A DNA stretch of 64,000 nucleotides from Streptomyces sp. WMMB 322 (lineage in GTDB: Bacteria > Actinomycetota > Actinomycetes > Streptomycetales > Streptomycetaceae). Below, piece by piece: positions 15,111 to 22,540 of the stretch. The notes beneath the pieces were generated by a model. That model was not told where the DNA came from. It ran no database searches and saw only the letters and a program-made list of their open reading frames with translations. How positions within the stretch are numbered: the stretch's first letter is position 1; every line of letters starts with the position of its first letter. A program made the translations under genes and the position numbers. The stretch is taken from positions 310,001 through 374,000 of the forward strand of contig NZ_FMHI01000005.1 in assembly GCF_900090145.1 (NCBI RefSeq), given 5' to 3'.

Positions 15111-16424
15111 TCAACCCCCCGTATTCGCCCGTTCGTTCGTATAGATGCGTGGTACCCGGGTGCCGATGCGCGTAACGATCTCGTACGAGATGGTGCCCGC
15201 CGCGCGTGCCCAGTCCTCCGCCGTCGGTTCCCCGTGCTCGCCCGGGCCGAAGAGCACGACGTCGTCGCCCTCCGAGGCCGCGTCCCCGCCGAGGTCGATC
15301 ACGAACTGGTCCATCGCCACGCGCCCCGCAACCGTCCGCCACTTGCCCGCGGCCAGCACCGGCGCGGTTCCGGAGGCGTGCCGGGGCACCCCGTCCGCAT
15401 AGCCGAGCGGCACCAGCCCGAGGGTGGTCGGACCGGGCGTGCGGTAGGTGTGCCCGTAGCTGACACCGTGACCGGCGGGTGCCGCCTTGACGAGGGCGAG
15501 CGACGCGCTCAGCGTCATCGCCGGACGCAGCCCCAGCTCCGCCGCCACCCCCACCTCCGGGGACGGCGAGAGCCCGTAGACGGAGACGCCCGGCCGTACG
15601 AGGTCGAAGTGGGACTCGGGCAGGGTCAGCGTCGCGGGCGAGTTGGCGTGATGCCGCACCTCCGGGTCGAGACCCGCGTGCTCCGCCATCGCGAGCACCT
15701 CGCGGAAGGCGTCGAGCTGCGCGGCGTTGGCGGGGTGCCCCGGCTCGTCGGCGCATGCGAAGTGCGACCAGATGCCGGTGACCTTCACGGCTCCCTCGGC
15801 CTCGGCCGCGCGTGCGGCGGAGACGAGGCCCGGCCACTCGGCGGGCTGGCAGCCGCCGCGCCCCAGGCCGGTGTCCGCCTTGAGCTGCACCCGCGCGGTA
15901 CGGCCGCTCCTGCGGGCCGCGGCCACGACCTCCTCCAGCGCCCACAGCGCGCTCGCCGAGACGTCGATGTCCGCCTCGACGGCCTCCTGCCACGGCCCGC
16001 CCGGCGTCCACAGCCAGCTCATCAGCCGGCCCGTGTCCCCGGCGGCGCGCAGCGCCAGTGCCTCCTGCGGCGTCGCGGTGCCCAGCCAGGACGCGCCCGC
16101 CTCGCGCGCTGCGCGGGCGCAGGGCACGGCTCCGTGGCCGTAACCGTCGGACTTCACGACCGCCATGAGTTCCGCGCGCGGCGCGCAGGCCCGCAGCGTG
16201 CGGACGTTCGCGCGCACGGCGTCGAGGTCGATCTCGGCGCGGGCGCGGCAAGCCTCGGCGCCGGTCGGCGCCGAAGACGCAGTGCCGGTCGTCCCGGAGG
16301 GGGCGCCGTCACCCGTCCCGGAGGGGGCAGCGCCGCCCGTCGCGGAGACACCGGTGCCGTGCGGCGCCGGGAAAGCCGTGGGGGGCGACGCTGAGAAAGC
16401 GGTGGGGCCGGAGCGGTCGTTCAC
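15111..16424 (-). CDS. alr: Alanine racemase with extended N-terminus
   Basis: A PLP enzyme making D-alanine for peptidoglycan. The PLP lysine K91 lies in AVVKSDGYGHG, and the Fold III barrel and C-terminal VAMDQFVIDLGG segment are clear. As read, the protein is 437 residues, with about 60 residues of Ser/Thr/Gly/Ala/Pro-rich sequence before RAEIDLDAVRANV; typical Streptomyces enzymes have only about ten residues there. Either the extension is real or the start is a later, non-obvious codon. It is cotranscribed with the hydrolase. Confidence 0.93.
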   Translation of the reverse strand: MNDRSGPTAFSASPPTAFPAPHGTGVSATGGAAPSGTGDGAPSGTTGTASSAPTGAEACRARAEIDLDAVRANVRTLRACAPRAELMAVVKSDGYGHGAVPCARAAREAGASWLGTATPQEALALRAAGDTGRLMSWLWTPGGPWQEAVEADIDVSASALWALEEVVAAARRSGRTARVQLKADTGLGRGGCQPAEWPGLVSAARAAEAEGAVKVTGIWSHFACADEPGHPANAAQLDAFREVLAMAEHAGLDPEVRHHANSPATLTLPESHFDLVRPGVSVYGLSPSPEVGVAAELGLRPAMTLSASLALVKAAPAGHGVSYGHTYRTPGPTTLGLVPLGYADGVPRHASGTAPVLAAGKWRTVAGRVAMDQFVIDLGGDAASEGDDVVLFGPGEHGEPTAEDWARAAGTISYEIVTRIGTRVPRIYTNERANTGG

Positions 16425-16633: not shown

Positions 16634-18097
16634 TCACGCAGGCGTCGGCGCACCGTCCCGCAGCAGATCGCGCCACGCGGCCGTCAACGCCTCCGCGACG
16701 TCCGAGGCACCCGCCGGACGCGGCGCGAACCGTCCCGCCAGACCATGCACGTACGCCCCGGCGGAAGCCGCGTCCAGCGCGTCCAGACCCCCGGCCAGCA
16801 GCGAACCGATGAGCCCCGACAGCACATCGCCCGTGCCCGCGGTCGCCAGCCAGCCGCTGCCCGTCGGGTTGACGCGCACGCCGCCGGGCCCGGCAACGAC
16901 CGTCGTCGACCCCTTCAGCAGCACCGTCGCGCCGGTGCGGTCCGCCAGCTCCCGCACGGCCGCGAGCCGGCGCGCCTCGACCGCGCCGCGCTCCCAGCCG
17001 AGCAGCGCGGCGGCCTCCCCGGCGTGCGGCGTCAGCACGGTCGGTGCCGTACGTCCGCGCAGCGCCGACTCGTCCGCCAGCCGCAGCCCGTCGGCGTCGA
17101 TGAGCACCGGCACCTCCGCCGACAGCACGTCGTCCAGCCGCTCCCGGTCCTCCCCCAGGCCCGACCCGACGGCCCACGCCTGGACGCGTCCCGCCTTGCT
17201 CGGCGGGCCCGCGGACACCAGCGTCTCCGGGTGCTTGGCGATCACGGCGTCGGCGGCGGGCCCCACGTAGCGCACGGCTCCCGCCCCGCCGCGCAGCGCC
17301 CCCGAAACGGCGAGCACCGCCGCCCCCGGGTAGCGCGCCGACCCGGCGACGACCCCGACGACTCCGCGCCGGTACTTGTCGCTCTCCGCTCCCGGCCGGG
17401 GCAGCAGACCGCTCACGTCGGCGTGCTGAAGGGCCTCCGCCGCCGGGCGCCCCTCGAGGTACGGGCCGAGCCCGATGTCGACCAGCCGCAGCGCCCCCGC
17501 GTACTCGCGTGCGGGGTCGAGAAGCAGCCCGGGCTTGTACGCACCGAACGTCACCGTCGCGTCGGCCCGTACGGCCACGCCCGGCACCTCACCGGTGTCC
17601 GCGTCGACGCCGCTGGGCAGGTCCACGCTCACGACCGGCGAGCGGACCGCTTCCACCAGCTCCACCGCCGCGGGGCGCAGGCCGCCCTTGCCCCCGGTCC
17701 CGACGATCCCGTCCACGACGAGGTCCGCACCCGCGATGACCGGTTCGACCGGCACCGCGACGCCCTCCACGGCGGCTCCCGGAGCGACCAGCACCCGCCC
17801 CCCTGCCGCCCGCAGAGCCGCCAGGCCGCCCTCGTGGACCCGCTCGGGCGACAGCAGTACGGCGCTCACTCCGGCTCCGCGCCGGGCGAGCCGTGCTCCG
17901 GCGAACAGGGCGTCGCCGCCGTTGTCCCCACTGCCGACGAGCAGCACGACGCGGCTGCCGTACGTCCGTCCGAGCATTCCCGTGCAGGCGGCCGCGAGGC
18001 CGGCCGCGGCGCGCTGCATCAGCACGCCGTCGGGAAGGCGACCCATCAGTTCCCGCTCTGCCGCCCGTACGGTCTCCACGCTGTAAGCAGTCCTCAT
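16634..18097 (-). CDS. nnr: Bifunctional NAD(P)HX epimerase/dehydratase
   Basis: A 487-residue metabolite-repair enzyme that restores hydrated NAD(P)HX to NAD(P)H. The N-terminal half is the YjeF_N epimerase (VGSGDNGGDALFAGARLARR, then VSVDLPSGVDADTG). The C-terminal half is the ribokinase-like ADP-dependent dehydratase (KYRRGVVGVVAGSARYPGA, TPHAGE, and ATAGTGDVLSGLIG). The ATG at 18095-18097 gives MRTAYSVETVRAAE, the normal family start. It lies 93 nt downstream of acpS on the same strand. Confidence 0.95.
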   Translation of the reverse strand: MRTAYSVETVRAAERELMGRLPDGVLMQRAAAGLAAACTGMLGRTYGSRVVLLVGSGDNGGDALFAGARLARRGAGVSAVLLSPERVHEGGLAALRAAGGRVLVAPGAAVEGVAVPVEPVIAGADLVVDGIVGTGGKGGLRPAAVELVEAVRSPVVSVDLPSGVDADTGEVPGVAVRADATVTFGAYKPGLLLDPAREYAGALRLVDIGLGPYLEGRPAAEALQHADVSGLLPRPGAESDKYRRGVVGVVAGSARYPGAAVLAVSGALRGGAGAVRYVGPAADAVIAKHPETLVSAGPPSKAGRVQAWAVGSGLGEDRERLDDVLSAEVPVLIDADGLRLADESALRGRTAPTVLTPHAGEAAALLGWERGAVEARRLAAVRELADRTGATVLLKGSTTVVAGPGGVRVNPTGSGWLATAGTGDVLSGLIGSLLAGGLDALDAASAGAYVHGLAGRFAPRPAGASDVAEALTAAWRDLLRDGAPTPA

Positions 18098-18190
18098 GCC
18101 CCCAGTCTGACGGCGCACCAGCGGGGCGGACCACACGAAGGTGACGAGGGCTCACCGGGAGCGGCGGGAGACGCCGTCCCTCCCCGGAGG

Positions 18191-18559
18191 TCACCCCTCG
18201 GCGATCACCACGGCGGAGGCGATCCCCGCGTCGTGCGACAGCGACAGGTGCCATCCCCGCACGCCCAGCGACTCGGCACGTGCCGCCACCGTGCCGCGCA
18301 CCCGCAGCGACGGCTGGCCCGAATCGGCCTGTACGACCTCGGCGTCGGTCCAGCTCAGGCCGCCCGGCGCCCCCAACGCCTTGGCCAGGGCCTCCTTCGC
18401 GGCGAAGCGGGCGGCCAGTGACGCCACGCCTCGCCTCCCGCCGCCGGGCAGCCACAACTCGGCGTCCACGAAGAGCCGTTCGGCCAGCGTCGGGGTGCGC
18501 TCCAGCGCCTCGCCGAACCGGTCGACCGCGGCCACGTCGATGCCGACCCCGACGATCAC
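18191..18559 (-). CDS. acpS: Holo-ACP synthase
   Basis: A 122-residue 4'-phosphopantetheinyl transferase that activates acyl carrier proteins from CoA. It has [14 protein letters not shown] with the Mg-binding Asp and [12 protein letters not shown] with the second acidic ligand. The GTG start at 18557-18559 overlaps the stop of the upstream glmS-like gene as GTGA, so translation is coupled. Confidence 0.95.
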
Positions 18560-19347
18560 CCGGCACCCCCGACGGTCTCGTCCTCGTCCCGCCCTCGCTG
18601 CGTGACCGGCTCGCCGGCGCCGGCAGCCCGCACGTCGTACGGAACCGGGTCCACCGGCACACCGTCCAGGTCGGTGACCCAGGCGCCCTCGGGACGCACC
18701 GTGACCACCCGGCCGTCGCCGACACCGGCCGCTTCCCGTGTGTGCGGTGCGAACGCGGCGGCGTGGGACGCCAGGAACGTCTCCCCGTCGCCGACTCCCA
18801 CCGTGAGCGGCAGCCCGGCGCACCCGCCCGTGACCACCTCGGGCTCGTCTGCGTGTACGGCGACCAGGGCGAAGGTACCGGTGAGCTGCCGGCAGACCTG
18901 GCGCATGGCCTCGGCCGGGTCGCCGCAGGAGGAGTAGTGCTCGGCGAGCAGGTGCGCCGCGGCCTCGGTGTCCGTCTCCGAGACCAACTCGTGGCCGCGG
19001 GCGGCGAGTTCGCGCCGCAACCGGTCGTGACCCGTGATGTCGCCGTTCTGGACCACGGCGACGCGGCCCGAACCGTCCATGTGCGGATGCGCGTTGACGT
19101 CCGTGGGCGGCCCCAGCGTGGCGCGGCGGATGTGCCCGATCCCCGTCGTGGCGGCGGGGAGGGGACGGACCCGCAGCTCCTCCCGCACGTCGCCGAACGT
19201 CCCCGCCTTCTTCGCCGCGGCCAGTCCGCCGTCGACGAGCAGGGCGATCCCGGCCGAGTCGTAGTCCGGTGGCTCGAGCCGGCGCAGTCCGTCGAGGAGA
19301 ACGGCAAGGGCGGAACGCCCTCCCGTGTACGCAACGATTCCGCACAT
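18556..19347 (-). CDS. GlmS-like stand-alone glutaminase domain (SIS domains missing)
   Basis: 263 residues that match the N-terminal class II glutamine amidotransferase domain of glucosamine-6-phosphate synthase: nucleophile C2 ([10 protein letters not shown]), NGDITGHD with the oxyanion Asn-Gly, NAHPHM, and [21 protein letters not shown]. Full GlmS is about 610-615 residues, and both sugar-isomerising SIS domains are absent. Normally invariant positions differ: RxGYDS reads PPDYDS, and HTRWATHG reads HIRRATLG. The last 25 residues look unrelated to GlmS. acpS starts inside its stop codon, so this is an internal deletion or a settled short form rather than a sequencing cut. A functional glmS is expected elsewhere in the genome. 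Confidence 0.85.
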
Positions 19348-19391
19348 GCGAGCACCCTAGAGCGTGGACGCGGCCGGGCGGCGGCGGGCGC

Positions 19392-19652
19392 TCAGCTGCC
19401 CCGGGCGATGCGCTCTATGGCGTCCTCGACCAGCTCCAGGTACTCGGCTTCCTCACACCGCGGCTTGCTGCCCAGCACGTACATGTCGAGGCTCTCCGTC
19501 AGGTCCTCGGCGAGGTCCTCGTCCGGCAGGTAGTCCAGTGCCAGATCGCCCTGTATGCGGGCGGCGAAGTCCCGGTCGGGAGGCGCCTGGGCGAGGGGGG
19601 ATCGTCTTCGTATGCGGTGCTTCAGGCTCATGCGGCCGATGCGGAGGGACAT
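19392..19652 (-). CDS. Small acidic hypothetical protein
   Basis: 86 residues from the ATG at 19650-19652: a basic N-terminus ([18 protein letters not shown]) and a long acidic, Leu-rich remainder ([22 protein letters not shown], then [17 protein letters not shown]) that should be helical. No signal peptide. The ribosome site is weak; starts at 19631 or further upstream are possible. It is 44 nt upstream of the glmS-like gene. I do not recognise the family. Confidence 0.55.
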
Positions 19653-19830
19653 GGCAGGAAACGTAATGGCACCGACCCCCGCACGTACACCGTCTGCACA
19701 TCCCGTTTTCACGGAAGATCCGTGCAGGTCGCTCCGGTCTCTCCGGCATGCACCTCAATCGTCCCCCGCCGGGCGTTCCGCACCCTCCCCCCGCCTGATT
19801 CAGGCCACAAGAACGGCGGAGAATGATCCC

Positions 19831-20787
19831 GTGCCGACGAAGCCCTACGTGGATCTCTCACGTGCCGAATGGAGCGTTCTGCGCGAACGCACGCCGCTGC
19901 CCCTGAACGCCGCCGAGGTCGAGGAACTGCGCGGCCTCGGCGACGTCGTCGACCTCGACGAGGTACGGGAGGTCTTCCTGCCGCTCTCCCGCCTGCTCAA
20001 CCTGTACGTCGCGGCCACGCACGGGCTGCGCTCCGCGGTGAACACCTTCCTCGGCGACGCCGGCCGGAGGCGGGAGGACGCTCGGCTCGGAACCCCCTTC
20101 GTGATCGGAGTCGCGGGCAGCGTCGCCGTCGGCAAGTCCACGGTCTCCCGGCTGCTGCGGGCGCTGCTCGCCCGGTGGCCCGAGCACCCCCGCGTCGAAC
20201 TGGTCACCACCGACGGCTTCCTGCTGCCGACGGCCGAACTGGAGGAGCGCGGCCTGTTGTCCCGCAAGGGCTTCCCCGAGTCCTACGACCGCCGCGCGCT
20301 GCTCGGCTTCGTCGCCGACGTCAAGGCGGGCAAGCCGGAGGTGACGGCGCCCGTCTACTCGCACCTCGTCTACGACCGGGTTCCCGGGGAGCGGCTGACC
20401 GTACGGCGGCCCGACATCCTCATCGTCGAAGGGCTGAACGTGCTCCAGCCCGCGCTGCCCGGCCGGGACGGCCGCACCCGCCTGTCCGTCTCCGACTACT
20501 TCGACTTCTCCGTCTACGTCGACGCCCGTACGAGCGACATCGAGGAGTGGTACCTGAACCGCTTCCGCGCGCTGCGGGAGACCGCCTTCCAGGATCCGCG
20601 CTCCTACTTCCACCGCTACACGGAGGTGACGGAGGAGGAGGCGCTGGAGTTCGCGCGCCGGACGTGGCGCACCGTCAACGAGCCCAATCTGCGGCAGAAC
20701 ATCGCGCCCACGCGCGGCCGGGCGACGCTGCAACTGCACAAGGGCGCGGACCACAAGGTCCGGCGGCTCTCGCTGCGGAAGCTGTGA
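19831..20787 (+). CDS. coaA: Pantothenate kinase (type I)
   Basis: A 318-residue bacterial type I pantothenate kinase, the first and regulated step of coenzyme A synthesis. The P-loop is [12 protein letters not shown], followed by [16 protein letters not shown] and the C-terminal [16 protein letters not shown] segment. The GTG at 19831 has a GGCGGAG ribosome site. It stands alone on the plus strand and converges on glmM. Confidence 0.96.
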
Positions 20788-20836: not shown

Positions 20837-22195
20837 TCAGCCCAGCGAACTCTTCACCACGTCGGCCAGGCGGCCCGCGACGGACTCGGCCTGCTCGCTG
20901 TCGGCGGCCTCCACCATCACCCGCACCAGGGGCTCGGTGCCCGACGAGCGCAGCAGCACCCGGCCCGTCCCGCCCAGCTCCCGTTCGGCGTCCGTCACGG
21001 CGGCAGCCAGCTCTGCGGAGGTGTCCACCCGGCTCCTGTCCACGTCCCGCACGTTGATCAGCACCTGCGGCAGGCGCTCCATGACGTTCGCCAGCTCCGA
21101 GAGGGACTTGCCGGTCGCGGCGACGCGTGCGGCGAGCATGAGCCCCGTCAGCGTTCCGTCGCCGGTGGTGGCGTGGTCCAGCGCGATCACGTGCCCGGAC
21201 TGCTCGCCGCCCAGCGCGTATCCGCCGCGCTTCATCTCCTCCAGCACGTAGCGGTCACCGACCGCCGTCTGCAGCACCTCGATCCCCTCACGGCCCATGG
21301 CGAGCCTGAAGCCGAGGTTGGACATGACCGTGGCCACCACGGTGTCCTTGCGCAGGTGCCCCGAGTCGCGCATGGCCAGGGCGAGCACGGCGAGGATCTG
21401 ATCGCCGTCGACGACCTCGCCCCGGGCGTCGACGGCCAGGCAGCGGTCCGCGTCGCCGTCGTGCGCCACACCGAGGTCGGCCCCGTGCTCCACGACGGCC
21501 GTACGCAACCCGTCCAGATGCGTCGAGCCGCAGTTGTCGTTGATGTTGAGCCCGTCGGGGTCGGCGCCGATGGTGAACACCTCGGCACCGGCGCGCGCGA
21601 ACGCCTCCGGGGAGACCCGGGAGGCCGCGCCGTTCGCCCCGTCGATGACCACCTTCAGCCCGTCGAGCCGGTTCGGCAGCACACCCACGAGGTGGGCCAC
21701 GTAGTTGTCGAACCCCTCGTCGTAGTCGCGCACGCGCCCGACCGCGGCGCCCGTGGGACGCTCCCAGGGCTGGCCCGTGCCGTGCTCGCGGTACAGCGCC
21801 TCGATGCGGTCCTCCAGCTCGTCGGCGAGCTTGTGGCCGCCCTGCGCGAAGAACTTGATGCCGTTGTCGGGCATGGGGTTGTGGCTCGCGGAGAGCATTA
21901 CGCCGAGGTCGGCACCGAGTGAGCCCGTCAGATAGGCGACGGCCGGGGTGGGCAGCACACCCACGCGCAGTACGTCGACGCCGGCGCCCGCCAGACCCGC
22001 GACGACCGCGGCCTCCAGGAACTCCCCGGACGCACGTGGATCCCGTCCGACCACGGCCACCGGCCGGTGCCCCTCGAACGAGCCCACTTCAGCGAGCACA
22101 TGCGCCGCCGAGACCGACAGGCCGAGCGCCAGCTCGGCGGTCAGCCCCTCGTTGGCGACACCGCGCACACCGTCCGTTCCGAAGAGTCGTCCCAC
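20837..22195 (-). CDS. glmM: Phosphoglucosamine mutase
   Basis: The 452-residue enzyme that turns glucosamine-6-P into glucosamine-1-P for UDP-GlcNAc. It begins [15 protein letters not shown]; the catalytic phosphoserine loop is [13 protein letters not shown], the metal loop DGDADRC, and the C-terminal phosphate-binding loop [14 protein letters not shown]. The GTG at 22193-22195 is preceded by GGAGGAA. The frame is open upstream but does not look coding. Confidence 0.97.
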
Positions 22196-22540
22196 TGTGG
22201 TTCCTCCGAGTCCGAGTCGAGTCCGAGTACCGGGCCGAGGGCGGCTCCCGACCGGATACGAGCTGTATACAAGCCGCATAAGAGGCGAACACGAACCGGA
22301 CACCACCCGGTCCTGACGGGAAAGCCGAGCCCGCCCTCATCCGTGCAAGGTATCCGCCGCGCCCCGGCCTTCCGCTCTCACCCGCGCCCGGCACGCCCAC
22401 GCGCCGCCCGCACTCACCAAAGGTGCCCGTCGCCACGCGTTGTATACCGACTGCACGCAGCAGGCATGCCACCCCGGGCGACACCGGTGCACCGCCCGCG
22501 TGACCCGCCCGCCCCGCGCCCGTCATCCTCACAGACGAAC
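22196..22540. other. glmM upstream region
   Basis: About 345 bp without a gene, expected to hold the glmM promoter. GTATAC occurs at about 22265 and again at about 22442. I cannot place -10/-35 elements with confidence. Confidence 0.45.

What the first reader, a model, noticed from the sequence alone, without database searches (positions are those of the whole stretch)
18556..19347. GlmS-like protein reduced to its glutaminase domain and coupled to acpS
Only the amidotransferase half of a GlmS-type enzyme is present, with the nucleophile Cys2 and the NG oxyanion kept, but several otherwise conserved positions changed and both SIS domains missing. The stop codon overlaps the acpS start, so the short form has been fixed in the operon. 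It may be a degenerate relic, a free glutaminase supplying ammonia to a partner, or a regulatory decoy of the true GlmS.
Basis: partly seen in the sequence, partly recalled or inferred. Interest (0 to 1): 0.55.

Follow-up and report, generated by a model that had tools for sequence, protein, structure and literature searches.

The report
Decaying half-GlmS gene before acpS
In some Streptomyces a second copy of the amino-sugar enzyme GlmS has lost its sugar-binding half; the leftover half is still read from the same promoter just before an essential gene but is losing its active site, so it looks like a useful relic rather than a new enzyme.

Summary
Window 18556-19347 (-) encodes 263 residues: a complete GlmS glutaminase domain, no SIS domain, ending in GTGA over the acpS start. 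The window is Streptomyces; one complete GlmS lies elsewhere in its genome. Of 392 genus genomes, 355 match the SIS half of the full locus glmS strongly, 37 do not. Ten of the 37, plus two named strains, carry a glutaminase-only gene before acpS; 21 have none there; 6 are unresolved. Neighbour genes put the 12 short forms in two separate places, so truncation probably happened twice. All 12 keep a -10 box 6 bases before ATG (leaderless start) and a frame open into acpS. dN/dS is about 0.3 in the window's clade (acpS 0.05-0.17; full-length domains 0.09-0.20). Channel residues R26 and W74 are lost in 12 of 12. The glutamine pocket persists in the window's clade but is eroding: Cys2 is Gly in one sister, His77 is Leu in the window. 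In the second clade most of the pocket is gone. Best reading: a translated glmS relic, kept mainly because its leaderless promoter and frame feed acpS (coupling inferred). A free glutaminase in the window's species is not excluded.

The parts
18556..19347 (-). glutaminase-only GlmS relic, 263 aa; residues 1 to about 240 are the glutaminase domain, residues 250-263 are predicted disordered
19354..19359 (-). TAGGGT, -10 box 6 bases before the ATG (leaderless start, inferred from sequence)
   Evidence: TANNNT 4-9 bases before ATG in 12 of 12 short forms (all at 6) and 30 of 31 full-length glmS; 21 of 3520 ATG/GTG triplets of the window as control
18556..18559 (-). GTGA overlap of the relic's stop and the acpS start
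18191..18559 (-). acpS, holo-ACP synthase, 122 aa; no leaderless-type -10 box at its start (a promoter further upstream was not tested)
18559..18627 (-). tail codons 241-263 after the glutaminase domain, variable between sisters; no SIS match
16634..18136 (-). NAD(P)HX epimerase/dehydratase (nnr), next gene of the conserved locus
15111..16424 (-). alr, next gene of the conserved locus (name recalled)
   Evidence: conserved neighbour
19831..20787 (+). coaA, upstream neighbour on the other strand (name recalled)
20837..22306 (-). glmM, conserved neighbour (name recalled)

Best explanation
The gene is the remnant of glmS1, the GlmS copy that sits between glmM/coaA and acpS in most Streptomyces. 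A second complete GlmS elsewhere in the genome made it redundant (one complete copy is shown in the window's genome; the redundancy is inferred). A deletion removed the SIS half at the domain boundary and joined the glutaminase half to acpS (shown by comparison; the deletion event is inferred). The leaderless-type promoter and start were kept, and the shortened frame still runs into the acpS start codon (shown in sequence). Leaderless initiation on this frame would bring ribosomes to acpS, which has no leaderless-type -10 box of its own in these genomes (sequence shown; transcript start and coupling inferred). The protein is therefore probably still translated and must fold harmlessly. It is under weakened selection, it first lost the channel residues that faced the SIS half, and it is now losing the glutamine pocket (shown by comparison; the order is inferred). 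Its main present role is as the first, promoter-bearing cistron of acpS; any glutaminase activity in the window's species is residual or dispensable.
For: Full GlmS at the locus in 24 genomes inspected and a strong SIS-half match in 355 of 392; 25 of 25 non-Streptomyces loci inspected have a full GlmS, 22 with nnr and 16 with alr beside it, so the short form is derived. One complete GlmS with all 11 active-site residues examined remains in the genome. dN/dS of the short gene is 0.29-0.35 in 6 pairs of the window's clade; acpS in the same pairs gives 0.05-0.17, and full-length glutaminase domains give 0.09-0.20 in 45 pairs. Third positions change more than first and second (59/60/157 in two pairs) and GC3 stays 0.86-0.97, so it is read as protein. 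R26 and W74 are lost in 12 of 12; the whole channel loop (Y25, R26, G27, Y28, W74) keeps 3 of 20 cells in clade A, 1 of 5 in ACA25, 2 of 30 in 6 of the 7 clade-B members. Cys2 is lost in 2 of 12 (HNM0575, G120) and N98 in 7 of 7 of clade B. HNM0575, with Gly for Cys2, shows no raised dN/dS against its sisters (0.29-0.31). Promoter and frame: 12 of 12 short loci have a leaderless-type ORF running into acpS and no such box at acpS. Of 21 loci without the gene, 8 have the box directly at acpS and 4 have it before a tiny ORF of 10-41 codons that ends on the acpS start; one of these, in G377, begins MCAVVG and looks like the first codons of glmS.
Against: Nine of 21 loci without the gene show neither arrangement, and four of these nine are the sister group of the window's clade, so coupling is dispensable. 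The NTGA overlap is built into the acpS start and is weak evidence. Only leaderless-type boxes were sought, so acpS could have another promoter. dN/dS near 0.3 and the predicted intact fold are more constraint than a mere spacer needs; in the three close clade-B pairs the short gene (0.29-0.37) is little above acpS (0.19-0.27). In the glutaminase-domain tree the HNM0575 end branch is the longest of clade A (0.21 against 0.12-0.15), so some speeding-up after loss of Cys2 is possible. In clade A the pocket is better kept (30 of 32 cells) than other invariant positions (417 of 568), which favours a past or present glutamine-handling role. Truncation kept the whole glutaminase domain in both clades, which blind deletion would not favour. 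No transcript or protein data were available.
Confidence: 0.6

Rival explanations
1. Free glutaminase: in the window's species the domain still binds and hydrolyses glutamine and releases ammonia without channelling it to a SIS domain.
For: Cys2, R73, T76, H86, N98, G99 and D123 are kept in the window protein; the pocket is kept in 30 of 32 cells of clade A while the channel loop is kept in 3 of 20, which is what loss of only the channel would leave; the predicted fold matches the E. coli glutaminase domain 1xff, TM 0.95 by target length, rmsd 1.3; truncation at the domain boundary in both clades.
Against: H77 is Leu and W74 is Arg in the window protein; the sister HNM0575 has Gly for Cys2, TGC to GGC, without a raised dN/dS; clade-A pocket positions lost in a single member are 2 of 8, no rarer than the 15 of 142 other positions; clade B keeps the gene after losing most of the pocket.
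Confidence: 0.2
2. Pseudoenzyme with a gained role: the folded, non-catalytic domain binds a partner (for example AcpS, GlmM or the other GlmS) or senses glutamine, and is selected for that.
For: dN/dS 0.29-0.37 among close relatives in both clades; 50 of 144 non-active-site invariant positions kept in all 7 of clade B; long persistence in a deep clade.
Against: The other clade-B pairs, ACA25 included, give 0.46-0.75; large in-frame gains and losses; no such gene at the locus in G113 and G330, which group with ACA25, and in the sister group of clade A. No new surface motif was sought.
Confidence: 0.15
3. Regulatory decoy that forms mixed oligomers with the true GlmS.
For: Shares a homologous domain with the remaining GlmS.
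Against: It is only 44% identical to the remaining GlmS over 224 columns and has lost channel residues that contact the SIS C-tail in GlmS/GFAT (contacts from PMC7948480, passages seen). No direct test was possible.
Confidence: 0.04

Closest known systems
GlmS (glutamine--fructose-6-phosphate transaminase, TIGR01135), N-terminal glutaminase domain
   Same: Homologous over residues 1-238; same fold; same locus as full-length glmS1 of the genus
   Different: No SIS domains; scores 217.8 against a cut-off of 418; R26, G27 and W74 changed
Isolated E. coli GlmS glutaminase domain (PDB 1xff)
   Same: Almost the same length and fold
   Different: 1xff is a domain of a longer enzyme; here the domain is the natural gene product and has changes at R26, W74 and H77
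Leaderless mRNAs of Streptomyces (PMC4895711, abstract and passages seen: about 21% leaderless, TANNNT -10 motif)
   Same: TANNNT 6 bases before the ATG
   Different: The first cistron is a decaying enzyme fragment; no transcript start was mapped here

Membership tests
GlmS (TIGR01135 / NF001484) | whole-protein score over curated cut-off | tested here: not met
   217.8 of 418 and 232.4 of 381 bits
GlmS (TIGR01135 / NF001484) | two SIS domains | tested here: not met
   no SIS in the protein or at the locus
GlmS (TIGR01135 / NF001484) | N-terminal nucleophile Cys | tested here: met
   Cys2 in the window; lost in 2 of 12 short forms
GlmS (TIGR01135 / NF001484) | ammonia-channel gate W74 and YRGY loop | tested here: not met
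   window has R at 74 and PPDY in the loop; role of W74 from PMC7948480, passages seen
Class II glutamine amidotransferase domain (PF13522, PF13537) | gathering score | tested here: met
   56.9 of 27 and 49.3 of 25 bits
Class II glutamine amidotransferase domain (PF13522, PF13537) | glutamine hydrolysis | not testable with these tools
   needs an assay
Pseudogene (broken reading frame) | stops or frameshifts | tested here: not met
   12 of 12 frames open into acpS, GC3 0.86-0.97

The most novel reading that the evidence does not exclude
A stand-alone, channel-less GlmS glutaminase domain arose twice in Streptomyces and passed through a free-glutaminase stage to become a family of folded pseudo-glutaminases tied to acpS. 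The series full glmS, half glmS, 10-41 codon ORF and bare leaderless acpS would be a natural experiment on how a leaderless first cistron can be shortened without losing the essential gene behind it.
Probability: 0.25. Interest if true: 0.6.

Novelty: new variant of a known kind. Interest (0 to 1): 0.42.

Why it matters
It shows a multidomain enzyme being dismantled in living species: channel residues are gone everywhere, the pocket is at different stages of loss, while promoter and reading frame stay. It makes a testable case that a leaderless first cistron is kept for the gene behind it rather than for its product, and warns that annotating these genes as GlmS or as glutaminase is unsafe.

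Tried and rejected
Split-enzyme idea: the genome's SIS-only GlmS-like protein (G000:C25:195445-196452) was considered as partner. It lies on another contig and no link to the short gene was found; its distribution was not tested. Overlap as proof of coupling: rejected as built into the acpS start. Single origin of the short form: the glutaminase-domain tree joins the 12 short forms (98/98), against the neighbour-gene tree, but several short forms are long branches and a tree holding clade A with full-length G145 is not rejected (p-AU 0.146); two origins are preferred, one is not excluded. Excess of losses at active-site residues over other invariant positions was not significant in either clade (Fisher p 0.75 in A, 0.10 in B). 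My first acpS-start column picked later in-frame starts; the overlap strings of that call and replace it. Literature: searches listed no paper on this half-gene, but only 15 of 179, 10 of 78 and 8 of 12 papers were listed; titles and starts of abstracts were seen, and passages of PMC7948480, PMC9272926, PMC12680351 and PMC4895711. The list of pocket residues is recalled; several of them are named in PMC9272926.

Full report
What is there. The ORF at 18556-19347 (-) has an ATG start and 263 codons. Its product matches GlmS over residues 1-238 and not beyond, and Pfam finds glutaminase domains only. AlphaFold2 gives a confident fold (mean pLDDT 91.5, tail 250-263 under 50); the best solved match is the E. 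coli glutaminase domain 1xff (rmsd 1.3, 36% identity). The stop overlaps the acpS start as GTGA. The window lies in a Streptomyces genome of 6.6 Mb: by this protein its nearest named relatives are S. nanshensis SCSIO 10429, Streptomyces sp. HNM0575 and S. abyssalis SCSIO 10390.

Full-length relatives. In the window's genome one complete GlmS lies on another contig with all 11 active-site residues examined in place; the short protein is 44% identical to it. In the 24 full-length genomes whose locus was inspected, glmS with its SIS half lies among glmM, coaA, acpS, nnr and alr, as far as the fetched pieces reach. In 25 non-Streptomyces loci inspected, of the 80 loci, all 25 have the SIS half, 22 have nnr and 16 have alr beside it. 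The short form is therefore derived. Among all 80 loci, 70 have frames of at least 500 codons from the match; the ten exceptions are four short forms, five that run off the contig and one of 435 codons.

Survey. A search of 392 genus genomes (own included) with the SIS half of the locus GlmS was bimodal: 355 at E of 2.8e-184 or lower, 37 at 9.8e-146 or higher. Of the 37, 10 carry a glutaminase-only gene next to acpS (G000, G389, G233, G037, G156, G271, G186, G120, G121, G345), 21 have no such gene there, and 6 are unresolved: G073 ends at the contig edge, G198 and G375 hold the SIS half in pieces, and G135, G168 and G276 gave no clear acpS. S. nanshensis (L039) and Streptomyces sp. ACA25 (L044) add two short forms, 12 in all.

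Origins. A tree of seven neighbour genes from 56 genomes (quick method) puts the short forms in two separate places: clade A (window, S. nanshensis, S. abyssalis, HNM0575), whose sister group lacks the gene and whose next neighbour G145 has it in full; and a clade of ten made of seven short forms (clade B) beside ACA25 and two gene-less genomes. The glutaminase-domain tree instead joins the 12 short forms (98/98), but several are long branches, and a tree with clade A beside G145 is not rejected (p-AU 0.146). Two truncations are the better reading; one is not excluded.

Selection. With my own Nei-Gojobori script, dN/dS of the short gene is 0.291-0.351 in the 6 pairs of clade A; acpS in the same pairs gives 0.052-0.165; full-length glutaminase domains give 0.090-0.197 in 45 pairs of 10 genomes. 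The three close pairs of clade B give 0.287-0.367, where acpS gives 0.188-0.265, a smaller gap; the remaining pairs of clade B and ACA25 give 0.46-0.75, where acpS gives 0.155-0.357. Third positions change most in both clades (59/60/157 and 103/101/193) and GC3 stays 0.86-0.97. So the frame is read as protein, under weakened but real constraint. Third positions are nearly all G or C here, which makes these ratios rough.

Which residues went. Of 240 positions, 155 are invariant in 31 full-length domains. R26 and W74 are lost in 12 of 12 short forms. The channel loop (Y25, R26, G27, Y28, W74) is kept in 3 of 20 cells in clade A, the pocket (C1, R73, T76, H77, H86, N98, G99, D123) in 30 of 32, and other positions in 417 of 568. 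ACA25 is like clade A (1 of 5, 7 of 8, 91 of 142). In clade B, with G156, close to G037, left out, the pocket is down to 18 of 48, the loop to 2 of 30 and other positions to 550 of 852. W74 forms the ammonia channel together with C-tail residues of the SIS half (PMC7948480, passages seen), so its loss is expected once that half is gone. Pocket decay has begun in clade A: HNM0575 has GGC where its sisters have the Cys codon TGC and the window has Leu for H77. Cys1 is described as the only catalytic residue of the domain (PMC9272926, passage seen), so the HNM0575 product should not hydrolyse glutamine in the usual way; this rests on one assembly. Its dN/dS against the sisters is not raised (0.29-0.31), although its end branch in the domain tree is the longest of the four (0.21 against 0.12-0.15).

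Promoter and reading into acpS. A TANNNT box stands exactly 6 bases before the ATG in 12 of 12 short genes, and 4-9 bases before it in 30 of 31 full-length ones; the control is 21 of 3520 ATG/GTG triplets of the window. This is the S. coelicolor -10 motif, and about 21% of primary transcripts there are leaderless (PMC4895711, passages seen). In 12 of 12 short loci the frame runs into the acpS start and acpS has no such box; promoters of other kinds were not sought. Of 21 loci without the gene, 8 have the box straight before acpS (four of them begin MSGIVGVGID, which reads as the glmS start fused to acpS across a shared stretch), 4 have it before an ORF of 10, 14, 21 or 41 codons that ends on the acpS start, and 9 have neither. 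Of 24 full-length loci, 7 run into an acpS start codon, one of these only at an alternative start upstream. The overlap itself is weak evidence, because of how acpS begins. The series, rather than the overlap, is the argument that the first cistron is kept for acpS.

Verdict. The finding is real and is more than a single broken gene: a redundant glmS cut at its domain boundary, with its leaderless-type promoter and frame intact, decaying from channel to pocket, and probably kept because acpS sits behind it. The window's copy keeps most of the pocket and could still be a weak free glutaminase; only an assay can tell.

Noticed in passing
L215, L217, L218, L191 (G184, G047, G105, G050): acpS begins MSGIVGVGID, as if the glmS start were fused in frame to acpS through a shared ATCGTCGG stretch, a clean deletion of the whole glmS.
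   Followed up: partly
L207 (G377): A leaderless-type 14-codon ORF MCAVVGCGPVGVVS ends on the acpS start; it looks like the first codons of a deleted glmS.
   Followed up: partly
L163:6235-6956 (HNM0575): About 720 bases lie between the acpS and nnr matches, with three arrays of degenerate 34-35 base repeats; the gap is about 57-88 bases in the other three members of clade A.
   Followed up: partly
genomes G135, G168, G276: No clear acpS of the locus type was found; two have only weak matches, one has none.
   Followed up: no
G000:C25:195445-196452 (L169): A SIS-only GlmS-like protein in a 502-codon open frame; perhaps a sugar-phosphate isomerase or deaminase (guess).
   Followed up: partly
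window 19392-19712 (-): A small ORF (106 aa in the listing) upstream of the relic matches in the three sister species, in several gene-less relatives and in some full-length genomes; no Pfam match.
   Followed up: partly
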